Origin: Fusobacterium perfoetens ATCC 29250 | Lineage (GTDB): Bacteria > Fusobacteriota > Fusobacteriia > Fusobacteriales > Fusobacteriaceae | NCBI RefSeq assembly: GCF_000622245.1 | Contig: NZ_KK211416.1 | Location: 230,296-294,295, forward strand | DNA: 64,000 nucleotides | Reading direction: 5' to 3' | Part shown: positions 55,245 through 58,234 of the stretch, piece by piece | How positions within the stretch are numbered: position 1 is the stretch's first letter | Layout: each line of letters opens with the position of its first letter | The notes under the pieces: model-generated | What the model was told of the DNA's origin: nothing | Seen by the model: only the letters and a program-made list of their open reading frames with translations | The model's database searches: none | Translations under genes and position numbers: made by a program

Positions 55245-56003
55245 ATGATTATCAAAGAGGAAATTTTTATAAAACCTTTTAAAACAAATAGACTTTTACA
55301 TATTTATTTACCAGACAATATAAAAGAGGGAGAAAGATTTCCTGTTATGTACATGTTTGATGGACATAATCTTTTTTATGATACAGATGCTACATATGGA
55401 AAATCTTGGGGTATAAAAGATTTTTTAGATTCTGTTAATGGAAGAATAATTATAGTTGGTATAGAATGTAATCATGAAGGAAATATGAGATTATGTGAAT
55501 TTTCTCCATACTCTTTTACTGATGAAGAATGGGGAAAAGTAAGAGGTCTTGGTAAAAAAACTACTAATTGGATAGCAGATGTTTTGAAGCCATATATTGA
55601 TTCTAAATTTCCAACTTTACCAGAAAGAGAATTTACTGGTATAGGTGGAAGCTCAATGGGAGGATTAATGTCTGTTTATGGAATAGCAACTAGGTCAGAT
55701 GTTTTTTCAAAAGCTGCTTGTGTTTCGCCTTTTTATGATTATATATTTGGAAAACTTGTTAAAGATATAGAAAATACGTCTTTTAATTCTGATACTACTA
55801 TATATATAAGTTGGGGAAAAAGAGAATTTGCAGGAGCTAAAAATCTTGCTATAGGAACTGAAAAAAATCTAATAATAAGTAGAATGTTTACAGAAAAAGG
55901 AGCTAAAGTTTTTCCTCATTTAATGGTTAGTGGTGGACATGATGAAACTTCTTGGGAAAAAGAGTTGCCATCATTTTTCTATGAGTTGGGATATATAAAA
56001 TAA
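55245..56003 (+). CDS. Esterase family (alpha/beta hydrolase) protein
   Basis: 252 residues. NRLLHIYLPDNIKEGERFPV then MYMFDGHNLFYDTDATYG, SWGIKDFLDS, TGIGGSSMGGLMSVYGIATR (GGSSMGG elbow), and MVSGGHDETSWEKELPSFFY (His). A Fes/esterase-D-type fold, distinct from the gene upstream. Cytoplasmic. Substrate unknown; together with the ATP-grasp gene it suggests making and breaking an ester or amide product. Confidence 0.84.
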   Translation: MIIKEEIFIKPFKTNRLLHIYLPDNIKEGERFPVMYMFDGHNLFYDTDATYGKSWGIKDFLDSVNGRIIIVGIECNHEGNMRLCEFSPYSFTDEEWGKVRGLGKKTTNWIADVLKPYIDSKFPTLPEREFTGIGGSSMGGLMSVYGIATRSDVFSKAACVSPFYDYIFGKLVKDIENTSFNSDTTIYISWGKREFAGAKNLAIGTEKNLIISRMFTEKGAKVFPHLMVSGGHDETSWEKELPSFFYELGYIK

Positions 56004-56077: not shown

Positions 56078-56365
56078 AATAGGACTTTATATAGAATATT
56101 TAACTGTTTTATTATAAAAATAAAAATTATTTTTGTAAGTTAAATAATTTAACTCAATATAATGTTAATTATATCTAATTTAATAAATCCACTTATTATT
56201 ATAAAAATAAAAATTATTTTTATAAGTTTTTAATTTTGCATAAAAATATATAATTTAACTTAAAGATTATATAATACTAATTAAAAAATAAAAATATCTT
56301 AAAATCCTTTATAAATTAAAAAACAAAAATATAGTATAAAAAGTCCTATTATTTTTTATATTTAT
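56078..56365. repeat. Repeat-rich intergenic region, left of the recombinase
   Basis: No gene. Inverted copies of a 16-base repeat stand at 56078-56093 (AATAGGACTTTATATA) and 56335-56350 (TATAAAAAGTCCTATT). Between them a 30-base element occurs twice as a direct repeat with 29 of 30 bases identical (56111-56140 and 56198-56227). Partial inverted copies of both kinds lie on the other side of the recombinase gene (57362-57539). Possible recombination sites. Confidence 0.75.
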
Positions 56366-57343
56366 TTAATCAGGGATTTTAGATATAACCTTCTTATCAA
56401 GTAAAGATTTTGCATTGATATATATCTCTGTTACTTTAGTATCTGAATGTCCTAAGAAATCTCTAATCTCTATTAAGTCTGCTCCATTAGAAGAAAGTTC
56501 CGTAGCGATTGCATGTCTTATATTGTGTGGGCTTATATTTAATCCTATAACTTTTCCCATATCTTGAATTATATTATAGAGAGCTTTATATGAAAGTTGA
56601 GAGTTTTTTTCATAAGAACTAGAAAAAACATATCTCTCTTCTAACTCCTCTTCTGAATATCCATACATATTCATAATATAATTTTTAAATTCTAAAAGTT
56701 TTTCTACAAGAATATTATGAAGTGGTTTATATAACTCCTTACCACTTTTAGATTTTTCAATTTTTATAAAGTAATCATTATCTCTTTTAAGTATATTTTT
56801 ATATCGGACATTTAATAATTCTTGACTTCTCATTCCTGTATAAAATAGTGTATACATAATAATGGTATTTCTATATTCCTTTTCTCCAGAAACTTTGTAA
56901 TTAGCTAAAATATTTTTTATATCTTCGTAAGATACTTTTAAAATGTTATCTAAGTTTCTAGAAGTTTTAAAAAGCTTTATATGTTTTAAAGGGTTAAGAA
57001 CATTATATTTTTCTAACTCCTTATATAAAGATTTAAGGGCTGACATAATTTTATTAACAGATGTTTTTTTTAGTTTTCTTTCATATAATAAATGAGAAAG
57101 ATAATCTTCTACATCTTCTTCTGTTATATCAGACATAAGTTCTAAAACTTCATCATTTTGTATAGGTTCTCCATTGTCATAAACAAAAAGTAAAAAATCA
57201 TTCAAATAAAAAAAATAATCTTTCATAGTTTTTTCACTACGATAGATTTCAAATATGGATTTTCTATTTTCTTTTTCTCTTTTTTTTCTACGCCGAACAG
57301 AAACTTCATTTTTTTCTTTTACTATTAAATCCAAAAACAACAC
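56366..57343 (-). CDS. Tyrosine recombinase (XerC/XerD-like)
   Basis: 325 residues. N-terminal helical core-binding domain (KTMKDYFFYLNDFLLFVYDN, TEEDVEDYLSHLLYERKLKK) and a catalytic domain with LFYTGMRSQELLNVRYKNIL (first Arg), SPHNIRHAIATELSSNGADL (His-x-x-Arg), IEIRDFLGHSDTKVTEIYIN (His and nucleophile Tyr). All catalytic residues are present, so it should be active. AGAGGTG lies before the start. Flanked on both sides by matching inverted repeats. It could be a chromosome-dimer resolvase with its site next to it, an invertase, or the remnant of a mobile element. Confidence 0.87.
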   Translation of the reverse strand: MLFLDLIVKEKNEVSVRRRKKREKENRKSIFEIYRSEKTMKDYFFYLNDFLLFVYDNGEPIQNDEVLELMSDITEEDVEDYLSHLLYERKLKKTSVNKIMSALKSLYKELEKYNVLNPLKHIKLFKTSRNLDNILKVSYEDIKNILANYKVSGEKEYRNTIIMYTLFYTGMRSQELLNVRYKNILKRDNDYFIKIEKSKSGKELYKPLHNILVEKLLEFKNYIMNMYGYSEEELEERYVFSSSYEKNSQLSYKALYNIIQDMGKVIGLNISPHNIRHAIATELSSNGADLIEIRDFLGHSDTKVTEIYINAKSLLDKKVISKIPD

Positions 57344-57361
57344 CTCTTTTATATATTAATC

Positions 57362-57539
57362 TATAGGACTTTTTATAAAAATTATATATTTTTATTTTTC
57401 TAAATTTTAATAATTAATTTATATCTTTAATTTTTTTATCAATGTATAAATATAAAATTAATAATTTACAAAAATAATTTTTATTTAAGAAAAATTAAAT
57501 AATTTATATTAAAAACTACATATTATAAAAAGTCCTATT
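57362..57539. repeat. Repeat-rich intergenic region, right of the recombinase
   Basis: The 16-base repeat occurs in inverted orientation at 57362-57377 (TATAGGACTTTTTATA) and 57524-57539 (TATAAAAAGTCCTATT, identical to 56335-56350). At 57466-57486 is an inverted copy of 21 bases of the 30-base element from the left side. No gene. It sits directly upstream of the recombinase start and downstream of the rsuA stop. Confidence 0.75.
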
Positions 57540-57553
57540 CTTAATTATATTTA

Positions 57554-58234
57554 TTATATAATATCTTCTAAAGATATTTCTTTTACTTCTCCAATTTTTA
57601 AATCTCCTATTTCTAATTTTCCAAAAGAAATTCTATATAGATATATAACTTTATTGTTTACAGCTTCTAACATTTTTTTTACTTGATGAAATTTTCCCTC
57701 TTTTATGATTAAATGAATTTTTTTATCTTCTATTTTTATAGCTTTTGCTGGCATTGTTATATATCCACCTATATCAACACCATTTCTTAATTTTTCTAAA
57801 TCTTCTTCTGATATATCTTTTTCTAATATGACCATATATGTTTTTTCAACATGACTTTTAGGAGAAAGTAATTTATGATTAAGCACCCCATCATTAGTAA
57901 GAAGTAATAATCCTTCTGTATCTTTATCTAATCTCCCTACTGGAGCTAAGTCTTTTTTTATAACCCAATCTGGCAAAAGTTCCATTACCGTTTTTTCTCT
58001 TGGGTCATCTACAGCAGTTATAAAACCAGCTTTTTTATTTAGAATATAATATCTAAATTTTTTATATGTAAGAATTTCTCCATTTACTTTTACTGTATCC
58101 TCATTTTCATTGATATTATCTTTTGGAGAAATTTTAAAGTTATCATTAACAGATATTTTTTTACTTTCAATTAAAGATTTTACATCTTTTCTACTTCCTA
58201 AACCACATTCAGTTAAAAATTTATCTAATCTCAT
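57554..58234 (-). CDS. rsuA: 16S rRNA pseudouridine synthase RsuA-like
   Basis: 226 residues. An S4 domain (MRLDKFLTECGLGSRKDVKS, then IESKKISVND) and the catalytic domain with APVGRLDKDTEGLLLLTNDG, where Asp in GRLDKDTEG is the catalytic residue, then HKLLSPKSHVEKTYMVILEK and KEGKFHQVKKMLEAVNNKVI. RsuA makes pseudouridine 516 in 16S rRNA. The start overlaps the stop of the upstream small gene by four bases (ATGA). Confidence 0.92.
   Translation of the reverse strand: MRLDKFLTECGLGSRKDVKSLIESKKISVNDNFKISPKDNINENEDTVKVNGEILTYKKFRYYILNKKAGFITAVDDPREKTVMELLPDWVIKKDLAPVGRLDKDTEGLLLLTNDGVLNHKLLSPKSHVEKTYMVILEKDISEEDLEKLRNGVDIGGYITMPAKAIKIEDKKIHLIIKEGKFHQVKKMLEAVNNKVIYLYRISFGKLEIGDLKIGEVKEISLEDII

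What the first reader, a model, noticed from the sequence alone, without database searches (positions are those of the whole stretch)
56078..57539. Tyrosine recombinase framed by four alternating inverted repeats and three copies of a second element
A 16-base motif (core TATAAAAAGTCCTAT) occurs at 56078 (+), 56335 (-), 57362 (+) and 57524 (-), giving an inverted pair on each side of the gene. A second 30-base element occurs twice directly on the left and, in 21 bases, inverted on the right. The repeats could be crossover sites: the region between 57362 and 57539 lies just upstream of the gene, so inversion there could switch its own promoter. Alternatives are a dif site beside its Xer gene or a small mobile unit.
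Basis: partly seen in the sequence, partly recalled or inferred. Interest (0 to 1): 0.75.

Follow-up and report, generated by a model that had tools for sequence, protein, structure and literature searches.

The report
Fusobacterium chromosome-dimer resolution site and recombinase
The repeats sit around the gene and DNA site with which Fusobacteriaceae most likely untangle doubled chromosomes at cell division: a one-enzyme Xer/dif system that seems to have replaced the usual two-enzyme one, whose genes survive but have lost active-site residues.

Summary
The repeats are real: four copies of a 15-base motif where shuffles give 0.0015, plus three copies of the second element. The main reading (invertible promoter) is not supported: a relative with a 97% identical protein has all four motifs in the same orientation. 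It is a 28-bp site (ATTAGATATAA-TTAACA-TTATATTGAGT, 56152-56179, minus strand) between the two left copies of the second element.

Its 18-bp core is unique in most genomes, usually just downstream of this xer gene, and marks the replication terminus: GC skew switches there in five genomes, within 130 bp in the best case. The recombinase is a single-copy, family-restricted core protein, active site intact in 55/55 orthologues. The family's XerD-position paralogue lost the first catalytic arginine in 50/50, the XerC-position one in 36/50; both are intact in sister families. The FtsK gamma domain is missing from 7/7 family genomes. The second element is a box at fixed distances from dif (+40; -31.5 or -46.5). 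The 15-base motif is a conserved xer leader element, role unknown. No recombination was measured.

The parts
56366..57343 (-). Xer-family tyrosine recombinase (called XerX here), 325 aa from GTG 57343; more likely start TTG at 57334 behind the Shine-Dalgarno AGAGGTG (322 aa, MDLIVKE...)
   Evidence: Pfam Phage_integrase E 1.6e-27. Catalytic R172, K199, H273, R276, H299, Y308; R, H, R, H, Y present in 55/55 orthologues; K199 invariant in the 16-row alignment. Family consensus begins MDII. Single-copy family-wide orthologue.
56152..56179 (-). dif: ATTAGATATAA-TTAACA-TTATATTGAGT (11-bp arms, 6-bp centre); invariant core ATATAATTAACATTATAT at 56157-56174
   Evidence: Only copy in the genome. Conserved beside xer across the family. 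At the GC-skew switch in five genomes. Outer arms co-vary as a palindrome across 40 sites.
   Evidence: 34 of 40 genomes have their best right-hand match at +39.5 to +41.5 (coordinates)
57472..57486 (.). third copy of the box (AAATAATTTTTATTT), in the rsuA-xer intergenic region, without a dif core
   Evidence: also present in G031
57363..57377 (-). AAAGTCCTAT/ATAGGACTTT motif, copy B, about 30 nt 5' of the xer start
   Evidence: In most genera one copy in the opposite orientation (ATAGGACTTT) lies 21-41 nt 5' of xer.
57524..57538 (+). motif copy A, 15 nt after the rsuA stop codon
56335..56349 (+). motif copy C, about 17 nt after the xer stop codon
56079..56093 (-). motif copy D, beyond dif (one mismatch)
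   Evidence: A copy in the same orientation beyond dif also occurs in G025-G028 and G034.
57554..58234 (-). upstream neighbour: pseudouridine synthase (RsuA-like), same strand; keeps this position in many relatives
   Evidence: flanks printed
55245..56003 (+). downstream convergent neighbour: putative esterase (not conserved at this place)

Best explanation
This is the Xer/dif chromosome-dimer resolution module of Fusobacteriaceae. A homodimer of XerX binds the two near-identical arms of dif. Two dif sites of a dimeric chromosome, brought together at the terminus, are synapsed by a XerX tetramer, which exchanges strands through Tyr308 across the 6-bp centre and returns two monomers. One recombinase serves both arms, unlike XerC plus XerD. 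The flanking AAATAAWAATTATTT boxes, at fixed distances on both sides, are inferred to be accessory binding sites (architectural protein or extra recombinase contacts). The ATAGGACTTT boxes are inferred to be a cis element for xer expression, duplicated in this species and its closest relatives. Shown here: position at the terminus, uniqueness, conservation, active-site integrity, decay of the other two Xer paralogues, loss of the FtsK gamma domain. Inferred: binding, catalysis, dimer resolution, the role of the boxes and of the motif.
For: dif core found (at most 1 mismatch) in 35/61 family genomes, as a single site in most and never with more than one extra near-match. In 35 of 53 loci it lies on the gene-sense strand within 1.6 kb downstream of xer, with further genomes in the opposite orientation. 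It is retained where unlinked from xer: 22 kb away in G036, 4.3 kb in G001, another contig in G035. GC skew and coding strand switch there: cumulative maximum 130 bp away in G027, 1.05 kb in G015, 18 kb in G000, 34 kb in G036, 10 kb in F. vincentii. 28 bp, 11+6+11, arms palindromic and co-varying. Recombinase active site intact 55/55. Paralogue D lost ArgI in 50/50 and paralogue C in 36/50 family loci, while outgroup copies are intact, 19/19 complete sequences. X, C and D are each one clade at 100/100. FtsK gamma 0/7 in the family against 2/2 in Leptotrichiaceae. Box spacing +40 in 34/40.
Against: No recombination was measured. In g7, g8, g9, g10, g13 and g14 the XerC-position paralogue keeps R-H-R-H-Y, so a partner is possible there. 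In some genomes (e.g. G037, G053, G056, G058) no site with at most one mismatch was found. In G000 and G036 the skew maximum is 18 and 34 kb away. Near-chance AT-rich matches to the box exist elsewhere in the genome.
Confidence: 0.85

Rival explanations
1. Phase-variable switch: the AGTCCTAT inverted pair 57363/57538 is recombined by the neighbouring recombinase and flips the xer promoter.
For: Inverted pair upstream of a tyrosine recombinase gene.
Against: Same orientation of motifs, box and flanks in G031. Most genera have only one upstream copy. The motif lacks paired 11-bp arms. The recombinase is a terminus-linked core gene with a proper dif.
Confidence: 0.03
2. Two-recombinase system: XerX works with the XerC- or XerD-position paralogue on the two arms.
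For: Both paralogues are retained as open genes under purifying selection between close species (dN/dS 0.06-0.26 and 0.10-0.55). Six genera keep an XerC-position active site.
Against: XerD-position copy without ArgI in 50/50, XerC-position copy without ArgI in 36/50. The two dif arms are near-identical palindromes that co-vary, unlike the distinct XerC and XerD arms.
Confidence: 0.12
3. The palindrome is a transcription terminator or RNA hairpin downstream of xer, not a DNA site.
For: Intergenic palindrome behind a stop codon; outer arms co-vary.
Against: Inner arms and centre conserved in sequence, AT-rich, no T-run terminator found, no Rfam match. One site in most genomes. Kept at the replication terminus when separated from xer.
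Confidence: 0.02
4. The inverted ATAGGACTTT boxes around xer-dif are replication-fork-trap (Ter-like) sites.
For: Inverted orientation on the two sides of dif at the terminus in several genera.
Against: Only a few copies, all within about 1.5 kb; in many genera only the copy at the xer leader; a Tus/RTP-type protein was not sought.
Confidence: 0.04

Closest known systems
XerS/difSL (streptococci, lactococci)
   Same: Single recombinase gene next to its site at the terminus
   Different: NCBIfam XerS 65.9 bits against a cut-off of 267. difSL is 31 bp with an 11-bp centre (PMC5357621); here 28 bp with a 6-bp centre. XerS recombination there depends on FtsK (PMC5357621); no FtsK gamma domain is found in this family.
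XerH/difH (Helicobacter, Campylobacter)
   Same: Single recombinase, usually linked to its site near the skew extremum (PMC2731167)
   Different: Sequence match to XerH is weak (E 5e-7, weaker than to archaeal XerA and E. coli XerD). difH arms AGTTATGAAAA/AAAAGTTTGA (PMC5357621) are unlike ATATAA...TTATAT.
XerL/dif (Legionellales, PMC9765430)
   Same: A distinct single-recombinase system in a group without working XerCD
   Different: Shown by experiment there, not here; XerL was not aligned here. In Fusobacteriaceae degenerate XerC and XerD genes are still present.
XerA/dif (archaea)
   Same: Single recombinase on a 28-bp dif, independent of FtsK (PMC5357621); best structural and PDB sequence matches are XerA
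   Different: NCBIfam XerA 126 bits against a cut-off of 220
XerC-XerD/dif
   Same: 28-bp site, 6-bp centre, ATAA...TTAT inner arms, terminus position
   Different: Both paralogues degenerate in most genera, arms symmetric, FtsK gamma missing

Membership tests
Xer/dif chromosome-dimer resolution (general) | One intergenic palindromic ~28-bp site per chromosome | tested here: met
Xer/dif chromosome-dimer resolution (general) | Site at the replication terminus (skew extremum) | tested here: met
   (five genomes)
Xer/dif chromosome-dimer resolution (general) | Core-genome tyrosine recombinase with intact R-K-H-R-H-Y | tested here: met
Xer/dif chromosome-dimer resolution (general) | Recombinase recombines the site; mutants show dimers or filamentation | not testable with these tools
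   needs experiment
XerC-XerD/dif | Two catalytically competent recombinases | tested here: not met
   (XerD-position copy lacks ArgI in 50/50; XerC-position copy in 36/50)
XerC-XerD/dif | FtsK with gamma domain | tested here: not met
   (0/7 family genomes, 2/2 outgroup genomes); FtsK motor not found in F. vincentii
XerC-XerD/dif | Curated XerC or XerD score | tested here: not met
   108 against 335 and 115 against 330 bits
XerS/difSL | Curated XerS score; 31-bp site with 11-bp centre | tested here: not met
   site definition from PMC5357621
XerH/difH | Sequence relation to XerH and difH arms | tested here: not met
   (E 5e-7, weaker than XerA and XerD); arms differ from those in PMC5357621
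XerL | Sequence relation to XerL | not tested
   no XerL sequence was compared
Invertible promoter (inverton) | Both orientations seen among relatives or reads | tested here: not met
   same orientation in G031; reads not available
Mobile element | Patchy presence, empty sites, target duplications | tested here: not met
   orthologue in 14/14 genera of the family, one per genome

The most novel reading that the evidence does not exclude
Fusobacteriaceae resolve chromosome dimers without canonical FtsK. XerX acts at a complex chromosomal dif with positioned flanking boxes, and the catalytically dead XerC and XerD paralogues have been kept as non-catalytic DNA-binding accessory factors at those boxes.
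Probability: 0.13. Interest if true: 0.85.

Novelty: new variant of a known kind. Interest (0 to 1): 0.62.

Why it matters
The published surveys read here give no dif for Fusobacteriota: the phylum is absent from Kono 2011 Table 1 (PMC3025954), and the 2017 review and 2009 survey do not mention it. This supplies the site, the recombinase and an evolutionary replacement in progress: sister families keep an intact XerCD pair and FtsK gamma, while Fusobacteriaceae have a new Xer, decayed XerCD and no FtsK gamma. It makes two open questions testable: how a single recombinase takes over from XerCD, and how dimer resolution is timed without FtsK. It also gives a unique terminus landmark and a site-specific integration target for a family with few genetic tools.

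Tried and rejected
Genome-wide repeat family for the 15-base motif: the exact copies elsewhere lie in coding sequence, and there is no enrichment in most genera. Rfam and terminators: nothing. Phages or plasmids carrying this Xer: only distant integrases in phages; one 64% viral contig of 5.9 kb, probably chromosomal. Viral contigs with the 18-mer: six, unrelated contexts. DnaA as origin marker failed, so skew was used. FtsK motor in sampled parts of four genomes: no hit, uninformative alone because only about 12-25% of each was sampled. AlphaFold model: mean pLDDT 72; Foldseek puts XerA, XerH and Cre on top but at TM 0.4-0.5, so it only confirms the fold class.

Full report
Observation. TATAAAAAGTCCTAT occurs three times exactly and once with one mismatch, as an inverted pair in each intergenic region beside the gene. 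Four copies in 572 intergenic bases compare with 0.0015 in shuffles. The 33-nt element is duplicated on the left and inverted on the right. The nearest relative, G031 (97% identical protein), has the same four motifs in the same order and orientation, and so shows no inversion.

The gene. The ORF at 56366-57343 (minus) is a simple tyrosine recombinase. It is below every curated cut-off: XerA 126/220, XerD 115/330, XerC 108/335, XerS 66/267 bits. It is present as one clear orthologue in nearly all of 61 family genomes and 14/14 genera. In the rest of the phylum only distant paralogues of at most 35% identity are found. The clade is supported at 100/100. R, H, R, H and Y of the active site are intact in 55/55 orthologues.

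The site. Printing the flanks of 30 orthologues showed one thing shared by nearly all: a palindrome, ATATAA-TTAACA-TTATAT, a few hundred bases downstream of the gene, in this window between the two copies of the second element. Allowing one mismatch it occurs in 35/61 genomes, as one site in most. It stays when the gene has moved: 4.3 kb away in G001, 22 kb in G036, another contig in G035. Over 40 sites the consensus is ACTAC-ATATAA-TTAACA-TTATAT-GTAGT, that is 11+6+11 = 28 bp. The inner arms are identical by the way the sites were picked; the four positions outside them, which were not selected, pair palindromically in 65-85% of sites against 44-51% expected. So both arms look alike, as expected for a single recombinase.

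The terminus. GC skew and coding strand go from plus to minus at the site in G000, G015, G027 and G036, with the opposite switch about half a genome away in the three single-contig genomes. The cumulative maximum lies 130 bp from the site in G027, 1.05 kb in G015, 18 kb in G000 and 34 kb in G036. In the F. vincentii SB055 chromosome, which PLSDB lists as a plasmid, the exact core is at 1,135,025, the skew switch within about 10 kb and the origin-type switch near 0.1 Mb of 2.11 Mb. For comparison, the median distance in proteobacteria is 7.3 kb (PMC2731167). This is the evidence that the site is dif.

The old system. Fusobacteriaceae carry two more conserved Xer genes: a XerC-position gene (trmFO-xer-hslV in this genome) and a recN-linked XerD-position gene. 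Their outgroup orthologues lie beside topA and recN and keep R-H-R-H-Y in 19/19 complete sequences. In the family the recN-linked gene has lost the first arginine in 50/50 and the XerC-position gene in 36/50. Both evolve under purifying selection between close species, so they are not plain pseudogenes. The FtsK gamma domain, which activates XerD in E. coli (general knowledge; see PMC5052618), is found in 0/7 family genomes and 2/2 Leptotrichiaceae. With a Leptotrichiaceae FtsK motor as query no Fusobacterium is among the best 60 records, although a RecN control from the same source ranks F. vincentii second, and 1.45 of its 2.11 Mb hold no hit. This is strong but incomplete evidence that no canonical FtsK exists there.

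Its core, AAATAAWAATTATTT, sits at a fixed place: right-hand centre +39.5 to +41.5 from the dif centre in 34/40 genomes, left-hand centre -31.5 in 21 and about -46.5 in 9. Two exceptions (G041, G042) show the mirror image, as if dif were read the other way round. Mean mismatches are 1.7 and 1.6 against 3.5 and 3.6 in shuffles. I infer accessory binding sites; what binds is unknown.

ATAGGACTTT lies 21-41 nt upstream of the xer start in most genera, down to 53% protein identity, and an inverted copy lies beyond dif in several. It is a conserved cis element of this locus. In G000, G031 and G032 a second, inverted copy accompanies it upstream. Its function is not resolved.

Verdict. An Xer/dif module of the single-recombinase kind, new for this family, with decayed XerCD, missing FtsK gamma and positioned flanking boxes. 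No paper describing it was found in the library. Binding, catalysis and dimer resolution remain to be shown.

Noticed in passing
G000 and 13 other Fusobacteriaceae genomes; F. vincentii NZ_CP084075.1: No DnaA above the curated TIGR00362 cut-off in 14/14 Fusobacteriaceae genomes, and no DnaA-type P-loop in 1.45 Mb of F. vincentii. The F. [quoted passage not shown] The initiator of this family looks highly divergent.
   Followed up: partly
NZ_CP084075.1 (loci L355-L384): The PLSDB record 'plasmid pSB055A' of Fusobacterium vincentii SB055 (2,108,235 bp) is the chromosome: it holds xer, dif, the XerC-position gene, recN, mreB and a chromosome-wide skew.
   Followed up: yes
G000:C4:92042-92929 and G000:C8:52111-52914: Active-site-dead XerC- and XerD-position paralogues conserved through the family; their retained function is unknown.
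   Followed up: partly
window 57344-57553: The rsuA-xer intergenic region in G000 and G031 looks like a dif-less partial copy of the region around dif (motif, one box, inverted motif), absent in most genera where rsuA and xer are close together.
   Followed up: partly
L355 7271-7288; L059; L060: In F. vincentii and genus g4 the dif core is in the opposite orientation relative to xer.
   Followed up: no
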